A DNA stretch of 64,000 nt, from NCBI GenBank assembly GCA_028277845.1, contig JANQFL010000070.1:62001-126000 (forward strand). The letters are read 5' to 3'. The translations under genes and the position numbers were made by a program. The notes beneath the pieces were generated by a model. The model had not been told where the DNA came from. It saw only the letters and a list, made by a program, of their open reading frames with translations, and did no database searches. Positions 43,107-61,169 of the stretch are shown piece by piece. How positions within the stretch are numbered: the stretch's first letter is position 1; each line of letters begins with the position of its first letter. Source of the stretch: Sneathiellales bacterium. GTDB taxonomy: Bacteria; Pseudomonadota; Alphaproteobacteria; JANQFL01.

Positions 43107-44258
43107 ATGGATTTTGACTGGTCGGATGAACAGCTTAACTTTAAGGCCAGAGTTGTTGAGTTTGCGCGTCAGCAACTGAACAACGATACCGTTGAACGTG
43201 ATCGCAACGGTGCTTTCTCCTTGCAGGATTGGAAACGGAGTGCAGCGTTCGGTATTCAACGAATGTCCGTTCCGGCGGCGTATCACCAAGGAGACGAAAC
43301 AGATTTCCTGACCGCCATGCTGGCGATGGAGGGATTGGGATACGGGTGCAGGGACAACGGCCTGACCTTTGCGCTCAACGCGCAGATGTGGACCGTGCAG
43401 TTGCCGATCGTCCACTTTGGTACCGAGGCGCAAAAGGAAAAATACCTGCCCGGCCTCTGTTCCGGCGACTTGATCGGAGCGCATGCGATTACAGAACCCG
43501 ATGCGGGATCGGATGTTTTCAACATACGCACGACGGCGGAAAAGCAACCCGGTGGCGGGTACGTTTTGAATGGCGAAAAGCGTTATATTTCGTTGGCTCC
43601 CATTGCCGACATTGCACTTGTGTTCGCCACCATTGATCCGGACATCGGTAAGTGGGGTATCACGGCTTTTCTCGTCGATCTCAAGGCACCGGGCGTGCGC
43701 ACCGGCCCGGTGCGCGACAAGATGGGCCTGCGCACGGTCCCGATGGGCGATCTCTTTTTTGAGAATGTTCATTTGCCCGAAGAAGCCAGGCTCGGGAAAG
43801 ATGGCACGGGCCTCAGCCTATCCACGAATTCCCTGGAATGGGAGCGCTGCTGCATCCTGGCCAGCCAGCTGGGCGCCATGGAACGGCAGCTGGAAGAGTG
43901 CGTCGCCTTCGCCCGCGACCGCGAGCAGTTCGACCAGCCCATCGGCAAGTTCCAGTCCGTGGCCAACCGGATCGCCGACATGCGCCTGCGGCTCGAAACC
44001 TCGCGCCTGCTTCTCTACAAGGTGGCCTGGCTGAAAAGCGAAGGGCGGCCGGCGATGATGGAGGCAGCGCTGCTGAAACTGCATCTCAGCGAATGCTTCG
44101 TGGACTCGAGCCTCGATGCCATCCGTATCCACGGCGGGCACGGCTATATGAGCGAGGCGGAAATCGAACGCAATCTGCGCGACGGCATCGGCGGCACGAT
44201 CTATGCCGGCACGTCGGATATCCAGCGCAACATCGTGGCCGGTCTGTTGGGCCTGTAG
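43107..44258 (+). CDS. Acyl-CoA-dehydrogenase-like L-prolyl-carrier protein dehydrogenase (PltE/RedW type)
   Basis: 383 aa flavoprotein. Family parts: AHAITEPDAGSDVFNIRTTA, RDREQFDQPIGKFQSVANR, IRIHGGHGYMSEAEIERNLR. The catalytic base is in the isovaleryl-CoA-dehydrogenase position, LEWER (E244/E246), while the usual C-terminal Glu is Ala in IYAGTSDIQR. That combination, plus the following prolyl-type adenylation enzyme and free carrier, marks the enzymes that oxidise prolyl-S-carrier to pyrrole-2-carbonyl-S-carrier in pyoluteorin, undecylprodigiosin and coumermycin pathways. Needs FAD. The 3' neighbour starts after 24 bases. Confidence 0.85.
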   Translation: MDFDWSDEQLNFKARVVEFARQQLNNDTVERDRNGAFSLQDWKRSAAFGIQRMSVPAAYHQGDETDFLTAMLAMEGLGYGCRDNGLTFALNAQMWTVQLPIVHFGTEAQKEKYLPGLCSGDLIGAHAITEPDAGSDVFNIRTTAEKQPGGGYVLNGEKRYISLAPIADIALVFATIDPDIGKWGITAFLVDLKAPGVRTGPVRDKMGLRTVPMGDLFFENVHLPEEARLGKDGTGLSLSTNSLEWERCCILASQLGAMERQLEECVAFARDREQFDQPIGKFQSVANRIADMRLRLETSRLLLYKVAWLKSEGRPAMMEAALLKLHLSECFVDSSLDAIRIHGGHGYMSEAEIERNLRDGIGGTIYAGTSDIQRNIVAGLLGL

Positions 44259-44282: not shown

Positions 44283-45869
44283 ATGGCTTTCACTTTGCCG
44301 CAACTGGTCGACGAATGGGCGGAACGCACACCCGATGCCGACGCCATCGGCTTCCTCGGCGAACGCCTGACCTACGCCGAGTTGTCCAGGCGCTCCGACG
44401 CTCTGGCGCGCGCCCTAATCGACGCCGGCGTGCGGCGTACCGACCGGGTCGGCATCCACATGGACAAAAACCTGCACACGGCGGTGGCCATGTACGGCAT
44501 CATGAAGGCCGGCGCGGCCTATGTGCCGCTGGACCCCTCGGCGCCGCCGCAACGCACCGCCGGCGTGATAGGGGATTGCGGCATCCGCCACCTGATCACG
44601 GACGACGCCATGGCGGCCGGCCTGCGCGCCATGGCGGATGCGCTGCCGGACGCGATGTGCCTGATCGGCGTCACGCCGGACCGGGGCTTGCCGGGCCGCG
44701 CCATCCCGTGGGACGCGGTCGCCACCCTTGACGGCAGCACCGCCGCCTTGCCCGCCGTGATCGAGAACGATCTCGCCTATATCATTTACACCTCCGGCTC
44801 GACCGGCGTGCCCAAGGGCATCATGCACACCCATCACAGCGGCCTGAGCTTCGCCCGCTGGGCCGTGCGGGAATACGGCTTCCGCAACGACGACCGCTTG
44901 GGCAATCACGCGCCGCTGCATTTCGATCTGTCGATCCTGGACTTCTTCGCCGGTGCCCTGGCCGGCGCCGCCACTGTCTTGATACCGGAGGAATACACCC
45001 GGCTGCCGGCGAGCTACTCGAAACTGATCGCCGATCAGAGGATCACCGTGCTGTTCACGGTGCCGTTCGCCCTGATCCAGTTGCGCACCAAGGGCGTGCT
45101 GCACGACCGCGACCTGGGCGCGTTGCGCTGGATCCTGTTCGGCGGCGAGCCGTTTCCGACCAAGTATCTGCGCAAGCTGATGGCAGACCTGCCCCATGTC
45201 CGGTTCGACAACATCTACGGCCCGGCCGAAGTCAACGGCGTGACCCACTATGTCGTCACATCGGTGGGCGAGGATGACCAGTCCGTGCCCATCGGACCCA
45301 TCGCCGACATCGCCGAGGACCTGGTCGTGGATGACAACGACGAACCGGTCCCGGTGGGCGAAATCGGCGAACTGCTGGTGCGCACGCCGACCATGATGCA
45401 GGGCTATTGGGAGCGGCCTGAACTCAACGCCAAGGCGTTTTACCGGCGGCCCGTCAGCTCGACCTACGATCACGTGTTCTACCGCACCGGCGATCTGGTC
45501 CGCAAAGGCGCCGACGGCATTTTCGAGTTTCTCGGACGCAAGGACCGGCAGGTCAAGGTGCGCGGATACCGCGTCGAGCTGGACGAAACGGAAGCGGCGC
45601 TCGTGGCCGACGAAACCGTCGAGGAAGCGGCGGTGTTCGCCGTGCCGCTGGCGGACGGCACCCAGGAAATCCGCGCGGCCGTCATTCTGAACGGTGCGGC
45701 CGGGGCGACCAAGAACGAGTTGCTGAACGGACTGCGCGACCGCGTGCCCTGGTACGGCCTGCCGGCCGACCTGGTGATCCACGACAGTTTTCCGCGTACT
45801 TCGACGGGCAAGATCGACAGGAAGGTTCTCCGCGCGCAGGCCATGGAGAACATGGAAGAAACGGCATGA
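44283..45869 (+). CDS. Stand-alone adenylation enzyme, L-prolyl-AMP ligase type (PltF/RedM-like)
   Basis: 528 aa single A domain. Core motifs: LAYIIYTSGSTGVPKGIMHT, IYGPAEVNGVTHYVV, FYRTGDLVRKGADG, DRQVKVRGYRVELDE, RTSTGKIDRKVL. HFDLSILDFFAGALAGAATV and the rare GPAEVNGVTHY segment are characteristic of the proline activators that serve pyrrole-forming carriers. It would load L-proline on the carrier protein encoded next. Pocket positions read by eye as D-L-L at the first three. ATP-dependent, cytosolic. Separated by 24 bases from both neighbours, so the three genes form a compact starter set. Confidence 0.85.
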   Translation: MAFTLPQLVDEWAERTPDADAIGFLGERLTYAELSRRSDALARALIDAGVRRTDRVGIHMDKNLHTAVAMYGIMKAGAAYVPLDPSAPPQRTAGVIGDCGIRHLITDDAMAAGLRAMADALPDAMCLIGVTPDRGLPGRAIPWDAVATLDGSTAALPAVIENDLAYIIYTSGSTGVPKGIMHTHHSGLSFARWAVREYGFRNDDRLGNHAPLHFDLSILDFFAGALAGAATVLIPEEYTRLPASYSKLIADQRITVLFTVPFALIQLRTKGVLHDRDLGALRWILFGGEPFPTKYLRKLMADLPHVRFDNIYGPAEVNGVTHYVVTSVGEDDQSVPIGPIADIAEDLVVDDNDEPVPVGEIGELLVRTPTMMQGYWERPELNAKAFYRRPVSSTYDHVFYRTGDLVRKGADGIFEFLGRKDRQVKVRGYRVELDETEAALVADETVEEAAVFAVPLADGTQEIRAAVILNGAAGATKNELLNGLRDRVPWYGLPADLVIHDSFPRTSTGKIDRKVLRAQAMENMEETA

Positions 45870-45893: not shown

Positions 45894-46166
45894 ATGAGTG
45901 AAGGATCGGTTGCGGCGAAGCTCGGAGAATTCATTTCGGGCGAATTGCTGGGCAACAGGCCCGTGAACGGTGACGACAATCTGTTGGCCGCCGGCATGGT
46001 CAGTTCGCTGGGCATGGTACGGCTTGTCGCCTACATCCTCGACACCTTCGGCTACGACGTCCCGCCCGAGGACTTCACCATCGAGAATTTTCGCACCATC
46101 AACGACCTCGACGCCTATCTTCAGCAGGCGCTGAACGGGGAAGGGGCGGCGGCCGATGCCCCTTGA
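45894..46166 (+). CDS. Free-standing peptidyl carrier protein for the pyrrole starter (PltL/RedO type)
   Basis: 90 aa acyl-carrier fold. The phosphopantetheine Ser is S38 in GMVSSLGMV, where a Ser replaces the usual Asp of DSL. Ends LDAYLQQAL as in PltL-type carriers. It would carry prolyl, then pyrrole-2-carbonyl, and hand it to the C domain of the next protein. Its stop lies 11 bases inside the next gene, an overlap consistent with stoichiometric coupling of starter carrier and first elongation module. Confidence 0.87.
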   Translation: MSEGSVAAKLGEFISGELLGNRPVNGDDNLLAAGMVSSLGMVRLVAYILDTFGYDVPPEDFTIENFRTINDLDAYLQQALNGEGAAADAP

Positions 46167-49100
46167 GCAGGAAAGCAGCCTCGCCGATCTGTCCAATCTG
46201 ACCCACAGTCAGGTGCTGATTTGGACGGGGCAGCTTTTGGCTCCGGACGACCCGCTATACAACATGGTGCTGGCGTTCCGCATCGGTGGCGCAGTGGATC
46301 CGGTCGTTTTCCAACAGGCCTTTCAGCGGCTGGTGGACGACTGCGATGTCTTGCGGACGGTGATCACGACCGAGAAGGGGGTTCCGCAGCAGCGGGTGCT
46401 GCCGGAGTTCGCCTACGCGGTGCCGCTTATCGATTTCAGCCAGGATGCCGCCCCGGAGCAACGCTATGCCGAGTGGCTCGCGCGCAGCAAGCAGCGCACA
46501 TTCGATCTGTCGCGCTGTCATTTCGATACGGCACTCGTCAAGTTGGGTGATGACGACTTCGTCTGGTATCTGAACCAGCATCATGTCCTGACGGACGCGT
46601 GGTCCGTGTCCGTGCTGTACCGGAAAATGCAGCACTATTACGGGCTGGCGCGGCAGGGCAGGCTGGACCAGGCCGAACCGCTGCCGGCGTATCAGGATTA
46701 CGTTGCGCAGGACCGCCGGGACCGCCGGTCGGACCGGTACGCCAAGGCACAGGCCTTTTGGTCGGAGAAACTCAAAACGCCGGTGCCGCCGTCCAGCTTC
46801 TACCGCAGGCGCGGCAGCACGCGCAGTGGCCGGACCGTCCGGATCCCGTGCCGTTTGGGTGCGGAGCGAACGCGGCGGGTGCGTGCACTGACCGGGGACC
46901 GCGCATTCCAAGCCTTTACCCCGGATTTGGCGCTGTTCCAGATCTTCGCCACCGTGCTGTTCGCCTATCTGCACCGGCTGAGCGGACAGCGCGCCGTTTC
47001 CATCGGGGCGCCGGCCCACAACCGCACCACGGCGGAGCAACAGGAATCGGCCGGGCTGTTCATCGAAGTGTTTCCGTTGTCGGCCGAAATCGGGGAGGCG
47101 GACAGTTTCGCCGATTTGTACAGGACGGTCTCGGCGGACGCCCGGCATTTCCTGCTCAACGCGGTACCGGGCACCGGCGGAGCGGAGACCAATCGCGCTT
47201 TCGACGTGATTCTCAATTACATCACTGCCCGCTTCGGCGACTTCGACGGACTGCCCATGCGTTCCGAATGGGTCCATGCCGATCATGGCGACGCCAATCA
47301 TCTGCTGCGGCTGCAAGTGCAGGACTTCGATCAGACGGAAGATCTCGAACTGTATTTCGACCTCAACGAAGCGGTCTTCGTGAACGCGGAACGGCAATGG
47401 GTGGGCGATCATTTCCTGCGCTTGCTGGACGCGCTGCTCGACGACCCCGACACCGAGATCGCGTCCGTGCCGCTGTTGTCCGACGATGAATTCGGCCGGT
47501 TCGAGAGCGAAGTGAACGCGTCGCCGGACGTGCCGCCCGAAGGCGAGACGGTGATACAGATGTTCGAGGCGCAGGTAGCGAAAACGCCGCAGGCGACGGC
47601 ACTGAGGTGTGAGGACGCTGCCCTCACATATCAGGACCTCAACGCGCGCGCCAACCGCGTCGCCCACGACCTGAGCGGTCGCGGGATTGGTCCCGGCAAT
47701 ACAGCGGCCATTTCGATGATGCGGTCGGTGGATATGGTGGTGGCGATATTCGGCGTCCTGAAAAGCGGCGCCGCCTACGTGCCGGTGGACCCGGGATATC
47801 CCGCCGACAGGGTCGCCTATTTGCTGGAAAACTCGGGCGCCGACCTGATCATCGTCGACGACCATGCCGCCGGCATGATCCCCGCCATCGACGTGCCGGT
47901 GGCCAAGCTCGCCGATTTGGGAGACGTAGGCGATGCGGCCGCCACCGGCAATCCGCCAAACCGGGCGGGCTCCGATGACACGGCATACGTCATGTATACG
48001 TCCGGATCGACCGGGCGGCCCAAGGGTGTTGCCATCGGCCATGACGGGTTGGCCAATTACGTATCCTGGTGCAAGCGATTCTATCTGCGGGGCGACGTGC
48101 TCGATTTTCCCTTGTTCACGTCGTTCTCGTTCGACCTGACCGTCACGTCACTTTATGTCCCGCTGGTTTCGGGCGGCACGCTGGTCGTCTATCCCGAACA
48201 TCCGGACCGGCGTGACGTGGACGTGCAGAAAGTCGTGGAAGACAACGCCGTCGATATCGTCAAGCTGACTCCGGCACACCTGTCCGTCGTTCAGAACACG
48301 GATTTCAGCACCTCGAGAATCCGCGCGCTGATCGTCGGCGGGGAAGATTTCAAATCCGATCTCGCCCGGATCATCAACCGGCGCTTCGGTGGTGACGTTG
48401 AAATCTACAACGAATACGGCCCGACCGAGGCCACCGTCGCCTGCGCCATCCATCGTTTCGACCGCGACGACGATACCGGGTCCTCGGTTCCCATCGGCCG
48501 GTCCATCGACAACCTGCAGGCCTATGTTCTGGATGCGGCGCGCCATCCGGTTCCTCAGGGCGTGACGGGCGAGATCCATATCGGCGGCGCCGGCGTGGCG
48601 AAAGGCTATGTCAACAACGCGGATGAGACAGCGGAGCGGTTCGTCGCGAACCCGTTTCGGCCGGGACAGCGCCTGTACAAGACGGGAGATCTCGGACGGT
48701 GGAACCCCGACGGCCGGCTGGACTACCTCGGACGCGCGGACACCCAGGTCAAGATCCGCGGCATCCGCATGGAACTGACCGAAATCGAGGGCGCCATACT
48801 GACCCATCCCGACGTATCCGAAACGGCCGCCGCTGTTTTCGAGCAGCGGCAATCTCCGTTACGCGCCGAAGAACAGGACTACTGCGTCCGCTGCGGTTTG
48901 TCGGGCAATCATCCCAGTGCGCAACTCGACGGGGATTGTCTTTGCCGATTGTGCCGGGTGTTCGAGAGCCAACGCGATCTGGCGATGGACTATTTCGGAA
49001 CCATGAACGAGTTGCGGTCCATCGCGCAAGACGTGAAGGCCTCCGCCCAGGGTCCGCACGACTGCATCATGCTGCTGAGCGGCGGCAAGGACAGCACATA

Positions 49101-51756
49101 CGCGCTATGCCAGCTGGTCGACCTGGGCCTGAAGCCGCTGGTCTTCTTTCTCGATAACGGCTTCATATCCGACGGTGCGAAGGCCAATATCCGCCGTATC
49201 GTCGACCAGTTGGGCCTGGATCTGCATGTCGGATCGACACCCGCCATGAACGACATATTCGTCGACAGCCTGAAACGGTTCAGCGACGTCTGCGACGGAT
49301 GCTTCAAGACCATCTACACGTTGAGCATGAACCTGGCGCGCGAGAAGGGCATCCGGTACATCTTCACCGGTTTGTCGCGCGGCCAGATCTTCGATACCCG
49401 GGTCGCGGATTTCTTCAATCAGCGGATCTTCGATCCCGATGAAATCGACCGCATGGTGATCGAGGCGCGCAAGGCGTACCACCGCATGGATGATGTGCCG
49501 TGCCGGAAACTGGACGTCGCGATGTTCAAGGACGATGCGGTGTTCGAAGAAATCCGCTTCGTCGATTTCTACCGCTACAGCGATGTATCGCTGGAAGGTA
49601 TTTTTGACTACCTCGACACCAAGGTGCCTTGGATCCGTCCGCTGGATACGGGCCGGTCCACCAACTGCCTGATCAACAAGGCCGGTATCCATGTTCACAC
49701 CAACGAACGGCGGTTCCACAACTACTCGTCGCCCTACAGTTGGGATGTCCGGCTGGGACACAAGAAAAGGGACGAGGCGCTTGCGGAACTGCAGGACGAC
49801 ATTGCGCCGGCCGAGGTGTACGACATCCTCCAGACCATAGGGTACCGAAGCGAAATCGCGGCCGCCGAGGACAAGCGACTGGTGGCCTACTATGTATCGC
49901 CGGTTCGGCTGCCCGCCGGGGAACTGGAGCGTCATCTGGCCGCCAAGCTCCCATCCGAATTCGTGCCCAAGGACTTCGTCCGGCTCGACAGCCTTCCTCT
50001 GACCGCCAATGGAAAGGTCGATCGCAGGGCACTGCCCGAGCCGGATGACGGGACCGGCGAACGGCCGGGCACGTTTATCGCCCCGGGCACGGAGACCGAA
50101 AAGGCCCTGGCCAGGATCTGGCGGCAGGTTCTGGGCTTGGATGATATCGGTATCCACGACGATTTCTTTGCCCTGGGGGGCGATTCGATTCACGGCATTC
50201 AGATCGTCAACCAGGCGCGGCGTGTCGGCCTGACGATCAATCCGCAACAAATCTTCGATCATCCCACCATTGCCGAGCTGGCCGCCGCCGCCGGGTCGGT
50301 GGCCGTCCGGCAGGCCGAGCAGGGCGCGGTCACCGGCCTCGTCGCACTGACACCGGCGCAGCGCCGGTTTTTCGATCAGCACGGTCCCGATCCCGAACCG
50401 TACAGCCAGGCCGTTTTGCTCGAAATCGAAGACGGCCTGGATATCGCGACGCTTGAAAACGCCATCCGTGAGGTCCTCGTCCATCATGATGGCCTACGAT
50501 GCAGTTTTTCGCGTACGGAATTGGGATGGCATGGTGTGCTGCATGACATCGACACGGCCGCGATTGCCATCGATTGGGTCGACCTGATCGGAACGCCGCC
50601 GGATGGGATCAGGGCCGCCATCGACCGGCATGCCCGGTCGGTCCACAAGACCCTCGACATCGGTGCGGCACCACTGTTCCGGGCGTGCCGTTTTTCGACG
50701 CCGGAAGGCGGCCCCGACTTGCTTCTCTTCATCGTCCATCACCTTGTGATCGACGGATTGTCCTGGCGGATCATGCTCGAAGACCTGGAAACGGCCTGCG
50801 AACAACTGATCGCGGGGCGCCGGGTCCGGCTGCCGGCCAAAACGGCATCACAGAAGGACTGGACCGAGGCTTTGCAGGACTACGCCTTTTCGGACGAACT
50901 GCGGGAGGAAACAGCCTATTGGACCAACACCACCGACGTGAATGCGGCGCTTCCGGGCCAATTGCCCCCGGGAACAGTCGACCGGCACGTGGAAGCGAGC
51001 ACCGTTTCCGCCGCCCTGACCAGGGATGAGACCCGTCAACTGATACACGATCTGCCGCAAGCCCTGGATATCCGCCTGCCCGAGGTTTTGGCGACGGCCT
51101 TGGCGCAGTCCTTCGCGGACTGGGCGGGCAGGGATGGCATCCTTGCCGATTTTGAAGGCCATGGCCGGGAGGCGATCGCCGACGGCCTGGATCTTCTGCG
51201 CTCGGTCGGATGGTTCACGTCCGTGTATCCCGTTGGCCTGCAATTGGGGCACTGCACCGGGTCCGTAGCGGCGATGAATGCGGTCAAGCGGCAGTTCCGG
51301 TCCGTTCCGAACCGGGGCATCGGGTATGGCGTGTTGCGTTACCTGGCGGGTGACAACGGAGCCCGCACCGCGCTGGAGCAACGCCCACAAGCGGACCTTT
51401 TGTTCAATTTCCTTGGCCACTGGGACAAAACGATTTCGGCGGAATCCAGGTTCCGGTTCACCGGGCCGGTTTATGTGTATTGGGGAGACGACAGCCGGCG
51501 CGCCTATGCGCTGGAGGCCAATGCGGCGGTGTTTGACGGCGCGTTCGTCATCGACTGGACGTTCAACGAGCGGCGTCACGCGCGCGCCGAGATCGAACGG
51601 TTTTCCGATACCTACATGCACCATCTGCGCCGCTTGATTGCCGACGGTGTGCGGGGAAGCGCCGAGGACCGGGCGGAGCCGGATTTCTCGCACGCCGACC
51701 TCGATGAACAGGGAATGGCCGATGTGCTCGCAGAATTCGGTCAGGACGCGGATTGA
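46156..51756 (+). CDS. NRPS elongation module C - A (interrupted by a PP-loop ATPase domain) - T - E
   Basis: 1866 aa. C ~15-430 (HHVLTDAWS, H142/H143, D147). A core ~463-890: YTSGSTGRPKGVAIGH, IYNEYGPTEATVACA, YKTGDLGRWNPDGR, QVKIRGIRMELTEIE. Residues ~905-1235 are a foreign domain: zinc-ribbon-like CVRCGL...CLCRLC, PP-loop SGGKDST (975-981), CDGC (1046-1049). A9-A10 resumes ~1240 with LPLTANGKVDRR. T: Ser1344 in LGGDSIHG. E ~1390-1800: HHLVIDGLSW, FEGHGREA, VGWFTSVYPV. Pocket by eye D-L-T-K-I-G-E-V-A, close to asparagine codes. The insert resembles N-acetyl-sugar amidotransferases (WbpG), which convert an amide into an amidine. Accepts pyrrole-carbonyl and yields a D-residue. Confidence 0.9.
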   Translation: MPLEQESSLADLSNLTHSQVLIWTGQLLAPDDPLYNMVLAFRIGGAVDPVVFQQAFQRLVDDCDVLRTVITTEKGVPQQRVLPEFAYAVPLIDFSQDAAPEQRYAEWLARSKQRTFDLSRCHFDTALVKLGDDDFVWYLNQHHVLTDAWSVSVLYRKMQHYYGLARQGRLDQAEPLPAYQDYVAQDRRDRRSDRYAKAQAFWSEKLKTPVPPSSFYRRRGSTRSGRTVRIPCRLGAERTRRVRALTGDRAFQAFTPDLALFQIFATVLFAYLHRLSGQRAVSIGAPAHNRTTAEQQESAGLFIEVFPLSAEIGEADSFADLYRTVSADARHFLLNAVPGTGGAETNRAFDVILNYITARFGDFDGLPMRSEWVHADHGDANHLLRLQVQDFDQTEDLELYFDLNEAVFVNAERQWVGDHFLRLLDALLDDPDTEIASVPLLSDDEFGRFESEVNASPDVPPEGETVIQMFEAQVAKTPQATALRCEDAALTYQDLNARANRVAHDLSGRGIGPGNTAAISMMRSVDMVVAIFGVLKSGAAYVPVDPGYPADRVAYLLENSGADLIIVDDHAAGMIPAIDVPVAKLADLGDVGDAAATGNPPNRAGSDDTAYVMYTSGSTGRPKGVAIGHDGLANYVSWCKRFYLRGDVLDFPLFTSFSFDLTVTSLYVPLVSGGTLVVYPEHPDRRDVDVQKVVEDNAVDIVKLTPAHLSVVQNTDFSTSRIRALIVGGEDFKSDLARIINRRFGGDVEIYNEYGPTEATVACAIHRFDRDDDTGSSVPIGRSIDNLQAYVLDAARHPVPQGVTGEIHIGGAGVAKGYVNNADETAERFVANPFRPGQRLYKTGDLGRWNPDGRLDYLGRADTQVKIRGIRMELTEIEGAILTHPDVSETAAAVFEQRQSPLRAEEQDYCVRCGLSGNHPSAQLDGDCLCRLCRVFESQRDLAMDYFGTMNELRSIAQDVKASAQGPHDCIMLLSGGKDSTYALCQLVDLGLKPLVFFLDNGFISDGAKANIRRIVDQLGLDLHVGSTPAMNDIFVDSLKRFSDVCDGCFKTIYTLSMNLAREKGIRYIFTGLSRGQIFDTRVADFFNQRIFDPDEIDRMVIEARKAYHRMDDVPCRKLDVAMFKDDAVFEEIRFVDFYRYSDVSLEGIFDYLDTKVPWIRPLDTGRSTNCLINKAGIHVHTNERRFHNYSSPYSWDVRLGHKKRDEALAELQDDIAPAEVYDILQTIGYRSEIAAAEDKRLVAYYVSPVRLPAGELERHLAAKLPSEFVPKDFVRLDSLPLTANGKVDRRALPEPDDGTGERPGTFIAPGTETEKALARIWRQVLGLDDIGIHDDFFALGGDSIHGIQIVNQARRVGLTINPQQIFDHPTIAELAAAAGSVAVRQAEQGAVTGLVALTPAQRRFFDQHGPDPEPYSQAVLLEIEDGLDIATLENAIREVLVHHDGLRCSFSRTELGWHGVLHDIDTAAIAIDWVDLIGTPPDGIRAAIDRHARSVHKTLDIGAAPLFRACRFSTPEGGPDLLLFIVHHLVIDGLSWRIMLEDLETACEQLIAGRRVRLPAKTASQKDWTEALQDYAFSDELREETAYWTNTTDVNAALPGQLPPGTVDRHVEASTVSAALTRDETRQLIHDLPQALDIRLPEVLATALAQSFADWAGRDGILADFEGHGREAIADGLDLLRSVGWFTSVYPVGLQLGHCTGSVAAMNAVKRQFRSVPNRGIGYGVLRYLAGDNGARTALEQRPQADLLFNFLGHWDKTISAESRFRFTGPVYVYWGDDSRRAYALEANAAVFDGAFVIDWTFNERRHARAEIERFSDTYMHHLRRLIADGVRGSAEDRAEPDFSHADLDEQGMADVLAEFGQDAD

Positions 51757-51770
51757 CGGGGCGGCGGGAC

Positions 51771-54596
51771 ATGTCACGGGATAACAACATACAGGCCGTC
51801 CGCCGGCTGACCCCGATCCAGGAAGGCATTCTTTTTCATACCCTGGAGGCCAAGCGCAGCGGCGTTTATTTCGAGCAGTACAGTTGCCTGTACGAGGGAC
51901 GGGTGGACACCGACAGATTGCGGCGGGCATGGTTTAGGGTTGTCGAGAGGCACGAAGTGCTGCATACCCTGTTTACCTGGGAAGGCCGCGACAAACCGCT
52001 GCAGATCGTGCGTCATACGGTGCCGTTGCCGTGGGAGGAACTGGACTGGCGCGATGCCGACGAGCATGAAGCCGCCGAGCGCTGGCAAGATTTCCTCGAC
52101 CGCGACCGCGCGCGCGGTTTCGAGCTGGACAAGGCGCCGCTGATCCGCCTGACCCTGGTGCGGGTGGCGGACGACCGCTACCGGTTTCTGTGGTCGTTTC
52201 ATCATCTGCTGATCGATGGCTGGTCGATGCGGCTGATCCTCAACGAAGTGACGGCGCTGTATGCCGGCGGCGACGGGTCCAGCCCGTTGCCCAGACCGCG
52301 ATCCTTCGGCGATCTGATCGCGTGGATGGAGGGTCAGGACACCGCGAAACAGGAAGCCTTCTGGACCGACGCGTTGAGCGGGTTCACCGAACCGACGTCC
52401 CTGTCGGCCATTGTCGGAAGCCAACAATTGCCCGTTTCCGGGCATCCGCACGACACGCAGGAAACCGTTCTCGACGCATCGCTGACCGCGCAGGTCCGCG
52501 CATTCGCCCGGGCCGAGCGCCTGACGTTGAACACCGTTCTTCTGGGGGCCTGGTCGCTGGTTCTCGGCCGTTACTGCGACAGGGCGGATGTGGTGTTCGG
52601 GACCACGGTGTCGGGCCGGCCGGCGGAACTGGATGGCGTCGACGGCATCGCCGGCATGTTCATCAATACGCTGCCATTGCGTGTTGACATTCCGGAAAAC
52701 GAGACGCCTGGCGCCTGGCTGTCGCGGCTGCAGGCCAGACAGATGGCCATGCGTGCCCATGAGCAGACGTCGCTGGCGGCGGTGCAGCGCTGGAGCGACG
52801 TTCCCGCGGGTTCGGCGTTGTTCGAAAGCATATTCGTTTTCGAAAACTTCCCCGAAAAAGCGGCGGGCGGTGCGCTGGTGCCCGAGCTGTACCCGCGGGA
52901 TGAACGGTACATCGAGTACAGCAATTATCCGCTGGCCATTTTGGCGGTGCCGGGCGAACAGATACGGCTGATTGCGGTCCACGATCCGGCCATATTCACG
53001 GCTGAGACGGCGAAACGGCTGCTGGAGAACTTGGCCACGGCGGTGGCCTCTCTGACCGCCGCCGCAACGGAGACGGTGTCGGCCGTCACCATCGTGCCGG
53101 CAGCCGAAAGGACGCGGCTGCTGGAGCAGTGGAACCGGACCGCGGCACCCTATCCGTCCGACCGGTGTATCCATCATCAGATCGAGCATTTCGCCCGGAC
53201 CACGCCGGATGCCGTCGCCTTGGCCGATACCGGGACGGCGGTCAGCTATGACGAATTGGACTCCAGAGCCAACCGGTTGGCCGTATTGCTGCAGAGCCGG
53301 GGGATCGGTGTCGGTGCCATCGTGCCCGTGTTTCTGGACCGCGGCATCGATGCAATAGTCGCCATGCTCGCCGTTCTGAAAGCCGGTGGTGCCTATGTCC
53401 CGCTCGACCCGACATTCCCGAAGGACCGTATTCGTCACATTCTCGAGGACATTGCGGCGGCAGACACGGGCCGGACCGGGCAACTGATCGTTCTGAGCAA
53501 CGTCGCGCTCTCGCACAATCTCCCAACGTCGGTTGTCGAGCCCGTCTGCCTCGACGACGGCGATCTTCCGTCCGATACCGGTCCGTTTGTCGAACCCGGT
53601 GTCACGCCGGACGACCTGGCCTATGTCATATACACCTCCGGGTCGACGGGACGGCCGAAAGGCGTCATGGTCACGCACCGGAATCTGGTCAACTCGACCC
53701 ACGCGAGACACGCGTTCTTCGGGGAACCGCTGTCGTCCTTCCTGCTGCTCTCTTCCCTGGCGACCGACAGTTCGGTCGCGGGCACGTACTGGGCGCTCTG
53801 CTCCGGTGCAAGCCTGGTCCTGCCGCCCCGACGCATCGAACAGGACATACCGGCCTTGACCGACCTGGTCGCCCGCCGGCAGGTCTCGCACTATCTCTGT
53901 GTGCCATCGCTGCATGCACTCATTCTCGAGCACAGTTCGGCTGATCGGCTTGCAAGCTTGAAGGGCGTCATGGTTGCGGGTGAGGCATGCACCGAAGATG
54001 TGGTGCTGAACCACTACACCGCACTGCCCGACGTGACTTTGTACAACGAATACGGACCAACCGAAGCAACCGTCTGGGCAACCGGGTGCACGTTGAAACC
54101 GGGCGAACCGGTGAGTATTGGCCGCCCCATCGCGAATACGACGGCGTACGTACTGGATTCCCATCAGCGCTTGTTGCCGGCCGGCGTACCGGGTGAGTTG
54201 TGCATCGGCGGCGTCAACGTGGCCCGGGGGTATCTCAATCAACCGGAACTCACGGCCGAGCGTTTCATTACCGACCGCTACGCGGACGATCATGGTGCGC
54301 GGCTCTATCGAACCGACGATCTGGTGCGGCACCGGGAGGACGGCACCATCGTGTTTCTGGGCCGGGTCGACAATCAGGTCAAGATCCGCGGTTTCCGCGT
54401 CGAACCGGAGGAAATCGAACGAGTCATCCTGGAATGCGGAGCGGTGAGCGAGGCTGCCGTCATTGCCACGGGGACCGGTTCGGACGGCGCCGACCCCACG
54501 GCACTGCTGTCGCAGTTGCAGGCGATGCCATCCGACGAGGCCGAACGACTGCTCACCGAAATCGAAACGCTGGAGATGGAGGCGGCGGCGATATGA
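51771..54596 (+). CDS. NRPS C - A core (adenylation domain lacking its C-terminal subdomain)
   Basis: 941 aa from the ATG at 51771 (a TTG at 51753 overlaps the previous stop). C domain ~10-440 opens VRRLTPIQEGILFHTL, a pattern fitting a D-residue donor, with HHLLIDGWS (H144/H145, D149). A core ~465-890: YTSGSTGRPKGVMVTH, VTLYNEYGPTEATVWATG, RTDDLVRHREDG (TGDL altered), QVKIRGFRVEPEEIE (A8). It then ends with an acidic helix (LLTEIETLEMEAAAI) instead of A9-A10. The missing subdomain opens the protein encoded two genes on, with a methyltransferase between: an interrupted A domain split into separate genes. Pocket by eye D-S-A-L-M-A-E-V-W; no confident substrate. Confidence 0.9.
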   Translation: MSRDNNIQAVRRLTPIQEGILFHTLEAKRSGVYFEQYSCLYEGRVDTDRLRRAWFRVVERHEVLHTLFTWEGRDKPLQIVRHTVPLPWEELDWRDADEHEAAERWQDFLDRDRARGFELDKAPLIRLTLVRVADDRYRFLWSFHHLLIDGWSMRLILNEVTALYAGGDGSSPLPRPRSFGDLIAWMEGQDTAKQEAFWTDALSGFTEPTSLSAIVGSQQLPVSGHPHDTQETVLDASLTAQVRAFARAERLTLNTVLLGAWSLVLGRYCDRADVVFGTTVSGRPAELDGVDGIAGMFINTLPLRVDIPENETPGAWLSRLQARQMAMRAHEQTSLAAVQRWSDVPAGSALFESIFVFENFPEKAAGGALVPELYPRDERYIEYSNYPLAILAVPGEQIRLIAVHDPAIFTAETAKRLLENLATAVASLTAAATETVSAVTIVPAAERTRLLEQWNRTAAPYPSDRCIHHQIEHFARTTPDAVALADTGTAVSYDELDSRANRLAVLLQSRGIGVGAIVPVFLDRGIDAIVAMLAVLKAGGAYVPLDPTFPKDRIRHILEDIAAADTGRTGQLIVLSNVALSHNLPTSVVEPVCLDDGDLPSDTGPFVEPGVTPDDLAYVIYTSGSTGRPKGVMVTHRNLVNSTHARHAFFGEPLSSFLLLSSLATDSSVAGTYWALCSGASLVLPPRRIEQDIPALTDLVARRQVSHYLCVPSLHALILEHSSADRLASLKGVMVAGEACTEDVVLNHYTALPDVTLYNEYGPTEATVWATGCTLKPGEPVSIGRPIANTTAYVLDSHQRLLPAGVPGELCIGGVNVARGYLNQPELTAERFITDRYADDHGARLYRTDDLVRHREDGTIVFLGRVDNQVKIRGFRVEPEEIERVILECGAVSEAAVIATGTGSDGADPTALLSQLQAMPSDEAERLLTEIETLEMEAAAI

Positions 54597-55384
54597 CGAA
54601 ACGGCTCAAACGCCACCGCGACTTCGAAATCTCGGTGCAGATCAAAAACGACGACTTCATTCGGCCGCCCCGCGACGCGCAACGCAATTGGTTGTTGAAC
54701 GGGACCTTGAACGAGTTTTCGGACAACTTGCTGGCGCTGAATACCCTGGCGCGCCGCTATGTGCCGGGTTCGGATGCGCTGCCCACAGGCGATCGAAGCC
54801 AGGCCGTGATGCACGATGAAGACATCATGGAAGACTGGCAACTGCCGCTGATGCAGGCCATGGCCGAGGGGGTGACCGAGGGTCACGGCCATGTGCTGGA
54901 AATCGGTTTTGGGCGCGGCGCCGCATCCACCATGATCCAGCGGTGCGGCGTCGAAAGCCACACCATTATCGAATGCAACGACTCCATCGTCGGACGTTTC
55001 AATACCTGGAAGGACGACTATCCGGGACGGGATATCAAAATGGTGCACGGCATGTGGCAGGATACCCTGCCGTCCCTCGGCACCTTCGACGGCATATTCT
55101 TCCACACCTATCCGCTGAACGAAGCCGAATTCGTCGAGCAGATCGGCGAAAGCACCACGTTTGCGGAGCATTTCTTCGAACATGCGGCGCAGCACTTGGT
55201 GGACGGCGGGCGTTTCACCTATCTGTCCAACGAAATGGATTCCCTGAGCCGGACTCACCAGCGGCTGCTGTTCCGTTACTTCGATCGCATCTCGATCCGG
55301 ATCGTCGAGAACCTGAACCTGCCGGAGACTGTCAGGGACGCCTGGTGGGCCGATTCGATGGCCGTTGTCGTGGCGTTCAAGTAG
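54593..55384 (+). CDS. SAM-dependent N-methyltransferase, guanidinoacetate/arginine type (GAMT/RMT2-like)
   Basis: 263 aa, start in ATGA overlap with the preceding stop after a clear GGAGG. Features strikingly like guanidinoacetate methyltransferase: DIMEDWQLPLMQAMA, SAM loop VLEIGFGRGAAST, SHTIIECNDSIVGRF, HGMWQDTLPSLGTFDGIFF, HTYPLNEAEF and GGRFTYLSNEMD. That family methylates guanidino nitrogens. It occupies exactly the gene position where interrupted adenylation domains carry an embedded methyltransferase (between A8 and A9), so it probably assembles with the A halves on each side and methylates a guanidino or amidino side chain of a carrier-bound residue. Cytosolic. Confidence 0.87.
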   Translation: MTKRLKRHRDFEISVQIKNDDFIRPPRDAQRNWLLNGTLNEFSDNLLALNTLARRYVPGSDALPTGDRSQAVMHDEDIMEDWQLPLMQAMAEGVTEGHGHVLEIGFGRGAASTMIQRCGVESHTIIECNDSIVGRFNTWKDDYPGRDIKMVHGMWQDTLPSLGTFDGIFFHTYPLNEAEFVEQIGESTTFAEHFFEHAAQHLVDGGRFTYLSNEMDSLSRTHQRLLFRYFDRISIRIVENLNLPETVRDAWWADSMAVVVAFK

Positions 55385-55388
55385 GCGG

Positions 55389-57410
55389 ATGATGGGTATG
55401 GAAACGACGGAGCGCACTTTGCAGGAACGGCTGAACGCCCTGTCGCCCGGGCAACGCGCCGAACTGGCGCGCCGGTTGTCCGGCAACGCCGGTCCGCGGC
55501 GGACGGAGCGGGACGCCCTGATCGCCTTTGTGGTCGGCCGGAACGGGGCGGTGGACGAAGACGCCGTGCGGGCGCGTCTGCGCGACCGTCTGCCCGACTA
55601 CATGGTGCCGCGCGATATCGTGGTGCTCGACTCGCTGCCGCGGCTGCCCAACGGCAAGATCGACCGCAACGCCTTGCATGCCGTCGATTGGACGCAACCG
55701 GAACCCGACGGGAGCGACATCGTCGCGCCGCGAAACGAGGCCGAACGGACCTTGTCGGATATATGGTGCGATGTGCTCGGACTCGACAGCGTCAGCATCC
55801 ATGACGATTTTTTCGAAGTCGGCGGCGATTCGTTGATCAGTATCCGTATTCTTTCGCGCGCCAATCAGGCCGGCTTGAAAATCAGACCCGAGCTGTTCTT
55901 CGAATATCCGACCATCGCCGGGCAAGCGGCCGCCTCCGGCGGGGCTACGGTCGTCACAGCCGAACCCGGCCTGGTGACGGGCACGATGCCTTTGATGCCT
56001 ATACAGCACTGGTTCTTCGAGAGAATTCCGGTCGATCCCCAACAGTGGAACCAGTCGGCGCTGTACACCGCGCCGGAAGGGTTCAGCGCCGACCGTCTGG
56101 AACGCAGCGTTCAGCATCTGATGAAGCATCACGATGCCCTGCGTCTGCGGTTCCCAATGGCCGGCGGGAAACGCCAAGCGACGTTCGATGACATGCCGGC
56201 GGAGCTGCCCGTGGTGCACGTCGACCTGTCCGGCGCCGATCCATCCGACGTCGAGGGCGAGATCGTGAAAACCGCCGAAAAGTATCATGCCCGGTTCGAT
56301 CTCGAGACCGGTCCGCTGGTCTGTTTTGTCCATTTCACCCTACCGGCCGGGCAGGACGCAAAAGTCCTTGTCATCGTGCATCATCTACTGGTTGATGCCG
56401 TTTCCTGGTGTTTGCTCAGCGAGCACTTCGACTTGATTTGTGGTCAGATTATGAGCGGCGAGGCCATCGCCCTGCCGGACAAGACAACGTCGCTTCAACA
56501 GTGGGCGATGCGGCTGAAGAACCGGGCTGAAGCACAGGACATCCAGTCGGAAGCCGCTTACTGGCGCGGCAACCTTGCCGAGGAAGGCGATCGGCTGCCG
56601 ACGGATTTTCCCGCGGAGGTCACCGACAATCGTTTTGCCGATACCGAGTATGTGTCCCGGTCCCTGGATGAGGAGGCGACGCAAACCCTGTTGCAGGACG
56701 TCTGCCAACGGCACAGGGCGCAAATCGACGAAATCCTGATGGCCGCGCTCGCCGGCACGGTCTGTGCCTGGACCGGGCGACCATCGGTGACATTCGATCT
56801 GGAGGGGCATGGCCGGGAGGCCATGTTCGACGACATGGATGTGTCGCACACCGTCGGTTGGTTTACGACCGTCTTTCCGGTGCGTATCGCGCTGGGGCAA
56901 AGCGACGAAACGGCCGACCATCTTGCCTCGGTCAAGGACCGGTTGCGCCGGATCGCCAATGGCGGCATCGGATACGGCTTGCTGCGGGACATGATGCCGG
57001 GCACGGAGATATCCGACGCGCTTCGCCAAGCGCCCAGGTCCGAACTGCTGTTCAACTATCTTGGACAGGTGGATTTGCTGGCCGGCGAGTTGAAGCATCT
57101 GCGGCTGGAAGACGACCAGTTTACGGCGGCGCGCAGTCCTCGCGGCATCCGAGCCTACGTTCTTGAAGTCAATGCGCGGATATCGTGCGGTAGGCTCCGG
57201 GTGGATTGGTCCTACGCTTCGCGTTTGCACAACCGTGACACCGTATTGGGGCTGGCGAACGATTTCATGGCGCGCCTGCAATCGTTGATCGGTTCGCACG
57301 GAGAGGAATCGCAACCCGTGGTGACCGCCGCCGATTTCCCGCTCGCAAACCTCGATCAAGACGAATTCGCCGCATTGGCGCAACTGCTCGACGAAGACAA
57401 TAAACAATAG
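55389..57410 (+). CDS. NRPS A C-terminal subdomain - T - E
   Basis: 673 aa from the ATG at 55389; ATGs at 55392 and 55398 are alternatives. Residues 1-45 form a short helical linker (LNALSPGQRAELARRLSG). Residues ~50-100 are the adenylation C-terminal subdomain with RLRDRLPDYMVPRDIVVLDS and A10 LPRLPNGKIDRNAL, whose Lys completes the active site of the core encoded two genes upstream. Carrier domain: Ser148 in VGGDSLIS. E domain ~200-640: HHLLVDAVSW (H331/H332, D336), LEGHGREAMF, VGWFTTVFPV, GGIGYGLLRD, FNYLGQ. It completes module two and gives a second D-residue, handed to the C-T-TE protein. Confidence 0.88.
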   Translation: MMGMETTERTLQERLNALSPGQRAELARRLSGNAGPRRTERDALIAFVVGRNGAVDEDAVRARLRDRLPDYMVPRDIVVLDSLPRLPNGKIDRNALHAVDWTQPEPDGSDIVAPRNEAERTLSDIWCDVLGLDSVSIHDDFFEVGGDSLISIRILSRANQAGLKIRPELFFEYPTIAGQAAASGGATVVTAEPGLVTGTMPLMPIQHWFFERIPVDPQQWNQSALYTAPEGFSADRLERSVQHLMKHHDALRLRFPMAGGKRQATFDDMPAELPVVHVDLSGADPSDVEGEIVKTAEKYHARFDLETGPLVCFVHFTLPAGQDAKVLVIVHHLLVDAVSWCLLSEHFDLICGQIMSGEAIALPDKTTSLQQWAMRLKNRAEAQDIQSEAAYWRGNLAEEGDRLPTDFPAEVTDNRFADTEYVSRSLDEEATQTLLQDVCQRHRAQIDEILMAALAGTVCAWTGRPSVTFDLEGHGREAMFDDMDVSHTVGWFTTVFPVRIALGQSDETADHLASVKDRLRRIANGGIGYGLLRDMMPGTEISDALRQAPRSELLFNYLGQVDLLAGELKHLRLEDDQFTAARSPRGIRAYVLEVNARISCGRLRVDWSYASRLHNRDTVLGLANDFMARLQSLIGSHGEESQPVVTAADFPLANLDQDEFAALAQLLDEDNKQ

Positions 57411-57486: not shown

Positions 57487-58698
57487 ATGAATATGGCTGA
57501 TTACGAATCGAGAACCGCCCGCATCCGGAATCGTGTCCGTTTCTGGGTGCTGTCGGCGGTATTGTCCGCCGCCGTGATGGTGGCGAGCACGGGCGCCGTC
57601 CTTGCGCATGCGTTGGGTGAGGGAGTGGTCTTTCTGTCCATTCAAAAGGACACCATCGAAGGGCATGTCGATTTTCCCCTGACGGACGTGAACGACATCG
57701 TTTTTGCCGGCGAGGTGAACGACGGCATTCTGACGCCGGAGGAGCTGGACCAGAGGATCGGGCGCCTCAAGGACTACATTGCCGAACGGGTGTCCATCGC
57801 CATGCCGGAAGGTGCGCTGACATTCCGATTCACGGGCCACGAAGTCGTGGAACCGCCCAAGGTTCCGTTCGGCTTCGTCCAGGTCTTCTTTTCCGTCGAC
57901 ACGTTGCCGGCGGTCCCCAGTGTACTGGAAATCCGGTATTCGGCCTTGTTCGATGTCAGTCCCCTGCACCGCGGTCTGTTGGTCATCGACCGAAACGCCC
58001 TGACGGGCTACCAGAACGACACCGAAGCGGTATCATTGATTTTCACGGAAGGAAGCCAGGTTCAGGAACTCGATCTGGCCGGGCAGTCGGGATGGGATTT
58101 GTTCGGCGACTATGTCGGCCACGGCATCTTCCACATCGGTATCGGTTTCGACCATATTCTGTTTCTCATCGCCCTGCTGCTGACCGCGGTGTTCGAGTGG
58201 AAGGATGGCAAGCGGGTCGCCTGTCAGTCGTTTCGCAAGGCCTTCTACAATGTGGTGGCCATCGTCACCCTGTTCACGCTGGCCCACAGCATTACCTTGA
58301 CCTTGGCGGTTTTGGACATCGTGACCCTGCCGTCACGGTTCGTGGAAGCCGTGATCGCCCTGACCGTCATCGCGGCGGCCGTTCACAACCTGTATCCGAT
58401 CCTGGGCAACAAGGCCCGCCTGATCGTGTTCGTCTTCGGGCTGTTCCACGGATTCGGTTTTGCCGGCGTGCTGACCGATCTCGGGTTCCAGAGTTCGGCC
58501 CTGTTCACGACCTTGTTCGGCTTCAACATCGGCGTCGAAATCGGCCAGATCATGATCGTCTCGCTGGTGTTCCCCTTGCTGTACTGGGCCAGGAACAGCG
58601 ACGGTTACGCCCGCTTCGGCGTCGGCGGCGGATCCCTGGCCATCGCCGGGTTCGGCGGGTTCTGGATCCTCGACCGGACCTTGGGACTGCCGTTCTGA
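57487..58698 (+). CDS. HupE/UreJ-family membrane protein
   Basis: 403 aa. N-terminal signal/anchor (~18-42), an extracytoplasmic domain of ~160 residues, then about seven membrane segments containing the HupE/UreJ core: GIFHIGIGFDHILFLIALLL, AIVTLFTLAHSITLTLAVL, FGLFHGFGFAGVL and FNIGVEIGQIMIV. The repeated His residues in membrane helices (FHIG, AHS, FHGFG) suggest metal handling; relatives are linked to nickel or to copper systems. Begins 76 bases after the last NRPS gene and leads a tail of membrane-protein genes. Function within the cluster is unknown. Confidence 0.85.
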   Translation: MNMADYESRTARIRNRVRFWVLSAVLSAAVMVASTGAVLAHALGEGVVFLSIQKDTIEGHVDFPLTDVNDIVFAGEVNDGILTPEELDQRIGRLKDYIAERVSIAMPEGALTFRFTGHEVVEPPKVPFGFVQVFFSVDTLPAVPSVLEIRYSALFDVSPLHRGLLVIDRNALTGYQNDTEAVSLIFTEGSQVQELDLAGQSGWDLFGDYVGHGIFHIGIGFDHILFLIALLLTAVFEWKDGKRVACQSFRKAFYNVVAIVTLFTLAHSITLTLAVLDIVTLPSRFVEAVIALTVIAAAVHNLYPILGNKARLIVFVFGLFHGFGFAGVLTDLGFQSSALFTTLFGFNIGVEIGQIMIVSLVFPLLYWARNSDGYARFGVGGGSLAIAGFGGFWILDRTLGLPF

Positions 58699-59480: not shown

Positions 59481-61169
59481 ATGACTTCATTCAGCGTGGC
59501 GCGGCCGGTTCCCGTCTTGCCGAACGCCGTGCAAGGTGCCATCAGTCGTCTGCCCCCGTCCGTCCATGCTGTCTTCGCGCGCTGGCCGTCGGTGCTGCTG
59601 TGCCTCCAGGCGGTCGCCGTGCTGGCGCTGTTTCTGGTGATCGACCGCTTGACCGAGTACAAGACCGTGTTGACTGCGGAGGGATACCGGCAACCGATCC
59701 TAGCGGTCGAAATCGTCACGTCGATCGGTGCGCCGCTGATGGCGGTTCTGCTCGTCGGAGCGGCCGTGCTGTATCGTTTCGGGCATCTGTCCGCGGCCTG
59801 GACGGACATGCACGGCGGCAAGACGCTGCGGTGGTTCGTGTTCGCCCTGGCGGCGCTGATGGCCTGGCCCTTTACGGCCTACGGCTACAATTTCAATTAC
59901 GACCAGGGCCACTATTGGGACCGCTTGCTGATCCTGCTGTTCCTGGTTCTGCTGTGGTTCCGTCCGGCGTTCATTTTTCCGTTTTTCCTGCTGGTGTTCG
60001 GCGTGATGTGGCAGTTGAGCGAACCGATGCTCGGCGGCAGCCTCATACCGCACAAACTGCAGGTGCTGCACGCCCTGGTCCTGTTCGGCGCGGCGTTTCT
60101 TCTGTTCGCCGCCACGGGCTGGCATATCGGCCGCGTCTATGTGTTCATGGTGTGCTGCCTCGTCGGCGCCGCCTATTGGGAAGCGGCGCTGGCCAAGATC
60201 GACATCAACTGGCTGTCAAGCGTGGGGCTGTCTTGGATCCCCATTCCGTCCTACGCCCATGGCTGGCTGGCACAGCTCGACAGCGGCACGATCATTGCGT
60301 TCTCCGAACTGCTGCGTCTTGTGGAATTCCCGGCCGTCATCGCCGTTCTGGTGCTGGAGGCGGGCTGCGTGCTGTTCCTGATCCACCGCAAGGTGTCGCT
60401 GGCCCTGCTCGTCGCGGTGATATGTTTTCACTTCGGCGTATTCGTGCTGTTCGGATTTCTCTTCTGGACCTGGATCTTCCTCGACGCGGCGTTGCTGATA
60501 GTGTTGTGGCGCGATCGGCATGATCCGGTGTTTCCGGTCTACGGCCGCGCGTCTTTCGTCCTGTCGGTGCCGCTGATCCTGTACGGCGCCCTGTGGGCGC
60601 ACCCACCGCATCTGGGGTGGTTCGATACCAAGCTGGCATACACCTACCGTCTGGAGGCGATCGGCGCCAGCGGCACGGTGTACCGACTGCCGGCGTCCTA
60701 TTTTGCACCCTATGAAGACGCCTTTACGATGACGAGCTTCGGGTATCTGCCGGAGTCCCACGGCATGCTGGTTGGACCCTATGGCGTCACGCATTTCGCC
60801 GGGGTGGCCGAGGCGGTCAACGCGGCGACATCGGCGGACGAGATATTCGAACTGGAAAAACGCATGGGGACGCAGCGGCACGACGACGCCCGGGCCGAAC
60901 GGTTTTACGGGTTCGTCCGGCGTTATGTCGCCAACCGCAACGCCGCGGGGACGCCCATGCTGGATCTGCACGGCCCGATGCAGTTCTGGAGTCAAACTCC
61001 GGGAGAGGTGCCGCCTGATGACGACAAGATCGTCACCGTGATTGTGAAGGAGCTGACGACGTTTTACGACGGCCAGGACATCCGGACGATCCGTGAACTG
61101 GAACTGGCGCGCCTGAGCGTTGCCGCCGAGCCCGGGCCCGCGAACGGAGGAACCAAGCCATCGCCATGA
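59481..61169 (+). CDS. HTTM-like polytopic membrane protein
   Basis: 562 aa from the ATG at 59481 (GGGGGAAAG before it). About ten membrane segments to residue ~390, then a ~170-residue soluble tail ending in repeated charged stretches. GYNFNYDQGHYWDRLLI, AAYWEAALAKIDINWLS, AVICFHFGVFVLFGFLFWTW resemble the horizontally transferred transmembrane (HTTM) family related to vitamin K-dependent gamma-carboxylase, with conserved Tyr, Lys and His in membrane helices. Its stop overlaps the following HTTM-DCC start by four bases, so the pair is probably a complex. Activity unknown. Confidence 0.65.
   Translation: MTSFSVARPVPVLPNAVQGAISRLPPSVHAVFARWPSVLLCLQAVAVLALFLVIDRLTEYKTVLTAEGYRQPILAVEIVTSIGAPLMAVLLVGAAVLYRFGHLSAAWTDMHGGKTLRWFVFALAALMAWPFTAYGYNFNYDQGHYWDRLLILLFLVLLWFRPAFIFPFFLLVFGVMWQLSEPMLGGSLIPHKLQVLHALVLFGAAFLLFAATGWHIGRVYVFMVCCLVGAAYWEAALAKIDINWLSSVGLSWIPIPSYAHGWLAQLDSGTIIAFSELLRLVEFPAVIAVLVLEAGCVLFLIHRKVSLALLVAVICFHFGVFVLFGFLFWTWIFLDAALLIVLWRDRHDPVFPVYGRASFVLSVPLILYGALWAHPPHLGWFDTKLAYTYRLEAIGASGTVYRLPASYFAPYEDAFTMTSFGYLPESHGMLVGPYGVTHFAGVAEAVNAATSADEIFELEKRMGTQRHDDARAERFYGFVRRYVANRNAAGTPMLDLHGPMQFWSQTPGEVPPDDDKIVTVIVKELTTFYDGQDIRTIRELELARLSVAAEPGPANGGTKPSP

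What the first reader, a model, noticed from the sequence alone, without database searches (positions are those of the whole stretch)
51771..57410. An interrupted adenylation domain split into three genes around a methyltransferase
Seen: the 941-aa protein stops after A8; the next gene is a complete stand-alone methyltransferase; the gene after that starts with the missing A9-A10 subdomain, then T-E. In normal interrupted A domains these three parts are one chain (A core, MT, A sub). Here the order is kept, but with stop/start junctions: ATGA overlap and a 4-base gap. The A domain must reassemble from separate proteins to work, which is unusual.
Basis: seen in the sequence. Interest (0 to 1): 0.82.

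Follow-up and report, generated by a model that had tools for sequence, protein, structure and literature searches.

The report
Amino-acid-activating enzyme split into three proteins
One catalytic domain of a peptide-making bacterial enzyme is encoded as two separate proteins with a separate methyl-adding enzyme gene between them, and 17 other bacterial genomes in at least three phyla keep the same split, so it is a stable design and not a sequencing error.

Summary
NRPS2 (51771-54596) is C-Acore and stops after motif A8; a stand-alone methyltransferase (54593-55384) overlaps it by ATGA; NRPS3 (55389-57410) starts with the missing A9-A10 subdomain, then T-E. It is not an artefact: the same three-gene order occurs in 17 further genomes (Alteromonadaceae, Anaerolineae, Flavobacteriaceae) with different junctions; in one the methyltransferase is a non-catalytic remnant. 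No fused A-MT-A form was found. One genome (Rhodohalobacter) has the same A domain as one uninterrupted chain with the methyltransferase gene elsewhere, so the pieces are halves of one A domain. Split halves carry tails and heads that the unsplit version lacks, probably docking helices. The A code is a published histidine code. The methyltransferase is guanidinoacetate-methyltransferase-like with two substrate acids replaced in 17/17 members; I propose side-chain N-methylation of carrier-bound histidine. A two-gene split A domain that works in trans is published (corallorazine Crz1/Crz2), so this is a new variant of a known kind: three pieces, a free methyltransferase, deep conservation. Complex formation, activity and methylation are inferred, not shown.

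The parts
51771..54596 (+). NRPS2: C domain (about 51771-53135) and A-domain core to A8 (about 53157-54485), no Asub, no T; His-type code DSALMAEVWK
   Evidence: Pfam, code, published His code
54483..54593 (+). C-terminal tail of NRPS2 after the A core (TALLSQLQAMPSDEAERLLTEIETLE...), proposed docking helices
   Evidence: present in all 17 split homologues, absent from the unsplit Rhodohalobacter A domain
54593..55384 (+). Stand-alone GAMT-like methyltransferase, 263 aa, with an N-terminal extension of about 70 aa
   Evidence: PDB 3orh E=1.3e-21; Foldseek best hit 3orh; family alignment
55389..57410 (+). NRPS3: N-terminal helical head, Asub with A9-A10 (about 55497-55682), T (about 55737-55943), E (about 55977-57308)
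   Evidence: Pfam and NCBIfam, alignment, model
55389..55490 (+). N-terminal head of NRPS3 (LQERLNALSPGQRAELARRLSG), predicted helical hairpin, proposed docking partner
   Evidence: helices 3-16 and 20-30 in the model; absent from unsplit A
46156..51756 (+). NRPS1: C-A(Asn/Asp-like code)-T-E; its A domain is interrupted at A8/A9 in one chain
48871..49860 (+). WbuX / N-acetyl sugar amidotransferase-like PP-loop insert in the NRPS1 A domain
   Evidence: TIGR03573 E=5.4e-31, below its family cut-off; 50-64% identical in homologous clusters
43107..44258 (+). Acyl-CoA-dehydrogenase-like, nearest to prolyl-carrier dehydrogenases
   Evidence: NF053553 E=3e-121 and NF045652 E=1e-110, both below cut-off
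44283..45869 (+). Stand-alone adenylation enzyme, probable prolyl-carrier ligase by context
   Evidence: TIGR01733; conserved neighbour
45894..46166 (+). Carrier protein for the starter unit
   Evidence: PF00550
40389..42896 (+). C-T-TE protein, probable release module
   Evidence: same architecture next to the split genes in homologues

Best explanation
The three genes encode one NRPS module in three proteins. C-Acore and Asub-T-E come together non-covalently, probably through the helical tail and helical head that flank the break, and form one histidine-activating A domain that loads the T domain beside Asub. The free GAMT-like methyltransferase then N-methylates the side chain (imidazole) of the carrier-bound histidine in trans. 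Shown here: the anatomy, the conserved split, an unsplit version with the same substrate code, the added tail and head, and the MT family with changed active-site residues. Inferred: complex formation, docking through these helices, histidine as substrate (from the code), the acceptor and site of methylation.
For: Same split in 17 other genomes with varying junctions. Rhodohalobacter has the same A domain in one chain, with its MT gene elsewhere. Tail and head occur only in split forms; head predicted helical; similar tail/head style at the ordinary NRPS1/NRPS2 junction of L006. A8 and A10 motifs intact on their halves. Code DSAL[M/I/L]AEVWK in 18/18 A2 domains, against published His code DSALIAEVWK. 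MT: GAMT fold, E46 to Q/L and D135 to H in 17/17. Precedent: Crz1.2 inactive alone, active with Crz2.
Against: No protein-protein or activity data. The tail was not modelled and no complex could be predicted. Histidine rests on a code. The acceptor of the MT is a guess; main-chain N-methylation or another acceptor is possible. Roles of GAMT E46 and D135 are from memory.
Confidence: 0.72

Rival explanations
1. The MT is a structural bridge: Acore, MT and Asub form an obligate ternary complex that mimics a fused interrupted A domain.
For: Gene order Acore-MT-Asub matches fused interrupted A domains and is kept in 17 of 18 other genomes. The MT has a conserved N-terminal extension of about 70 residues that GAMT lacks.
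Against: In Rhodohalobacter the MT keeps that extension although the A domain is unsplit and the gene lies elsewhere. In G995 the MT is an 87-aa remnant that diverges faster (N-terminus 45-55% identical to relatives against a mean of 64% among intact ones) while the A core is as conserved as elsewhere. Crz halves need no third protein, although there the MT is fused to the core.
Confidence: 0.2
2. The MT acts on a different acceptor: an amidine or guanidine made by the NRPS1 insert, or the main-chain nitrogen, and not the histidine side chain.
For: GAMT methylates a guanidine, and the NRPS1 insert resembles N-acetyl sugar amidotransferases, which (general knowledge) make amidines. In Rhodohalobacter the MT gene sits directly after NRPS1.
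Against: In 18 genomes, window included, the MT or its remnant sits in the histidine module. The residues that I recall as binding the guanidine in GAMT are both replaced.
Confidence: 0.25
3. Sequencing or assembly error, or a decaying module: the genes are really one, or the module is dead.
For: Known interrupted A domains are one chain; the window comes from a draft assembly of 124 contigs.
Against: Independent genomes show the split with junctions from a 4-base overlap to a 24-base gap; the MT lies in another frame than both A halves; all three proteins are conserved across phyla with A8, A10 and carrier motifs kept.
Confidence: 0.02

Closest known systems
Corallorazine synthetase Crz1/Crz2 split A domain (PMC11342130)
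   Same: A domain broken after A8 by a stop; A9-A10 at the start of the next gene, followed by T; shown to adenylate only when both proteins are mixed.
   Different: Two genes, with the N-MT fused to the core on Crz1; glycine; terminal reductase. Here three genes, a free GAMT-like MT, a His code, and an E domain after T.
Interrupted A domains with MT at A8/A9 (KtzH, TioS, McyA, PchF; listed in PMC11355689)
   Same: MT coded between A8 and A9.
   Different: There one polypeptide; here three proteins, and the MT is of another type.
Guanidinoacetate N-methyltransferase (PDB 3orh, 1xcj)
   Same: Fold; LExGFG, IIECND and TYPL motifs.
   Different: N-terminal extension of about 70 residues; E46 to Q/L and D135 to H; lies in NRPS clusters.

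Membership tests
Split A domain (Crz type) | Core to A8 on one gene, A9-A10 then T on the next | tested here: met
Split A domain (Crz type) | Adenylation only when both proteins are present | not testable with these tools
   needs protein; the Crz result is
Split A domain (Crz type) | MT fused to the core protein | tested here: not met
   MT is a separate reading frame here and in every homologue
Interrupted A domain (A-MT-A) | MT inserted between A8 and A9 in a single chain | tested here: not met
   gene order fits, single chain does not
Guanidinoacetate N-methyltransferase | Class I MT fold with GAMT sequence motifs | tested here: met
Guanidinoacetate N-methyltransferase | Acidic guanidine-binding residues E46 and D135 (human numbering; role from memory) | tested here: not met
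   Q/L and H in 17/17 members; kept in three plain GAMT-like proteins
His-activating A domain | Code DSALIAEVWK or near it | tested here: met
   DSAL[M/I/L]AEVWK, with V for A at the third place in two, in 18 A2 domains (position 278 re-read by aligning the conserved proline); published code in PMC12283262
His-activating A domain | Activates histidine in vitro | not testable with these tools
   needs assay

The most novel reading that the evidence does not exclude
A phylum-spanning NRPS family in which the A domain is a multi-protein machine: Acore and Asub held by dedicated docking helices, with a GAMT-derived enzyme as a new class of carrier-bound histidine side-chain N-methyltransferase, next to a module whose A domain carries a built-in amidotransferase.
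Probability: 0.35. Interest if true: 0.8.

Novelty: new variant of a known kind. Interest (0 to 1): 0.6.

Why it matters
The small subdomain of an A domain swings by a large angle in each catalytic cycle, so a natural A domain whose two halves are separate proteins tests how much covalent linkage that motion needs. Nature supplies matched split, MT-less and unsplit versions with the same substrate code, a ready comparison set. The tail and head, if they dock, are a natural cut-and-join site inside an A domain for NRPS engineering. The MT family is an uncharacterised branch of the creatine-making methyltransferase with a changed active site.

Tried and rejected
Frameshift or assembly error: rejected by conservation. 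All homologues fused: rejected. Close relatives of the window genome: its family holds no other genome, and 385 genomes of its class gave none. Viral contigs and plasmids: no relatives. The GAMT-like genes L002 and L003 from the same phylum are not in NRPS clusters. MAFFT placed code position 278 one residue off; I read it by the conserved proline. The unsplit A domain is unresolved on the A-core tree (AU p=0.41), while its MT nests inside the split clade (95/93; AU p=0.033, group named after the tree was seen). Literature on histidine N-methylation in NRPS, GAMT in NRPS, or amidotransferase inserts: nothing relevant in the held library. The 2020 survey of interrupted A domains (10.1039/d0cb00092b) is not held, so I could not check whether it lists this family.

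Full report
Observation. The three reading frames are as described. NRPS2 (51771-54596, 941 aa) holds a condensation domain and an AMP-binding core, but neither AMP-binding_C nor a carrier domain. It stops soon after A8. The next gene starts inside its stop (ATGA, 54593) and encodes 263 aa. After a 4-base gap NRPS3 (673 aa) starts with AMP-binding_C including the A10 lysine, then a carrier domain and an epimerase-type domain.

The methyltransferase. Pfam and NCBIfam give no match at the default limits. The solved structures give human guanidinoacetate N-methyltransferase, E=1.3e-21, and the predicted model (mean pLDDT 72.7) finds the same fold first. The first 70 or so residues have no counterpart in GAMT but are conserved within the family. 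GAMT's E46 and D135, which I recall as the residues that hold the guanidine, are Q/L and H in all 17 family members, whereas three plain GAMT-like proteins keep E and D. So it is a GAMT-derived family that probably has another acceptor.

Conservation of the split. A scan of a collection of 84,980 species gave seven full-length relatives with 51-63% identity. Six lie between an A core and an A subdomain on separate genes. Profile searches of Flavobacteriaceae and Alteromonadaceae added ten more with the MT between the halves, one of them frame-broken, and one (G995) in which the MT is an 87-aa remnant between still separate halves. In all, 17 other genomes share the split. The first junction ranges from a 4-base overlap to a 24-base gap in the seven clusters measured. 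The MT was never found fused. By contrast, in NRPS1 the insert at the same A8/A9 site stays in one chain wherever the gene is complete.

The natural control. In Rhodohalobacter the MT follows NRPS1, and the A2 domain is one uninterrupted chain (C-Acore-Asub-T-E, 1505 aa) with the same substrate code. Between A8 and A9 it has only a short loop, whereas the split versions have an extra tail on the core and an extra head of about 30-45 residues before the subdomain. The head is predicted as a helical hairpin followed by a low-confidence linker. Tails and heads of similar style occur at the ordinary NRPS1/NRPS2 junction of the Anaerolineae cluster. I read them as docking helices that replace the covalent link; this is inference. 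The Rhodohalobacter MT nests among the split Bacteroidota ones (95/93; AU p=0.033, borderline and with the group named after seeing the tree). Its A core does not resolve, so whether the unsplit A domain is a reversal, a replacement or the older state is open.

Substrate. The A2 code is DSAL[M/I/L]AEVWK, with V for A at the third place in two, in all 18 A2 domains (with position 278 read by aligning the conserved proline). DSALIAEVWK is a published histidine code (PMC12283262). A1 reads DLTKIGEVAK, one residue from DLTKIGEVGK, which that paper discusses in its Glu/Gln, Asp/Asn section. The starter genes resemble a prolyl-carrier dehydrogenase and a ligase, which would give a pyrrole-2-carboxyl cap (the dehydrogenase matches lie below family cut-offs).

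Mechanism. Acore and Asub-T-E reassemble into a His-activating A domain, and the free MT methylates the His side chain on the carrier. The reassembly step has direct precedent: corallorazine Crz1.2 is inactive alone and active when Crz2 is added (PMC11342130). The MT is unlikely to be an obligate bridge, since Rhodohalobacter keeps it apart and G995 has lost its catalytic part while the A core is as conserved as elsewhere (one genome only).

Novelty. Interrupted A domains and a two-gene split A domain are known. New here are the three-piece split with a free methyltransferase, a GAMT-type methyltransferase in an NRPS module, conservation across phyla, and matched split, MT-less and unsplit forms. 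The library held no paper on this, but the main survey of interrupted A domains was not available.

Noticed in passing
48871-49860: The NRPS1 A domain carries a WbuX / N-acetyl sugar amidotransferase-like PP-loop domain at A8/A9, conserved in all homologous clusters where it could be seen, with an Asn-like code; possibly Asn amide to amidine. No paper found; arguably as novel as the split.
   Followed up: partly
57487-58698: HupE/UreJ-like membrane protein (name from sequence look, no family match) that recurs beside the split genes in the Bacteroidota and Rhodohalobacter clusters at 34-39% identity.
   Followed up: partly
59481-61169: Large membrane protein without a family match that recurs in several Flavobacteriaceae clusters (25-31% identity).
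   Followed up: no
62470-63693: MocR/MppQ-type PLP enzyme (enduracididine MppQ E=2e-56, below cut-off) downstream; unclear whether it belongs to the cluster.
   Followed up: no
L045:9938-10201: Methyltransferase reduced to an 87-aa open frame made of its N- and C-terminal parts, still between separate A halves.
   Followed up: partly
40389-42896: Terminal C-T-TE protein has no A domain, so how its carrier is loaded, or whether it joins two chains, is unclear.
   Followed up: no
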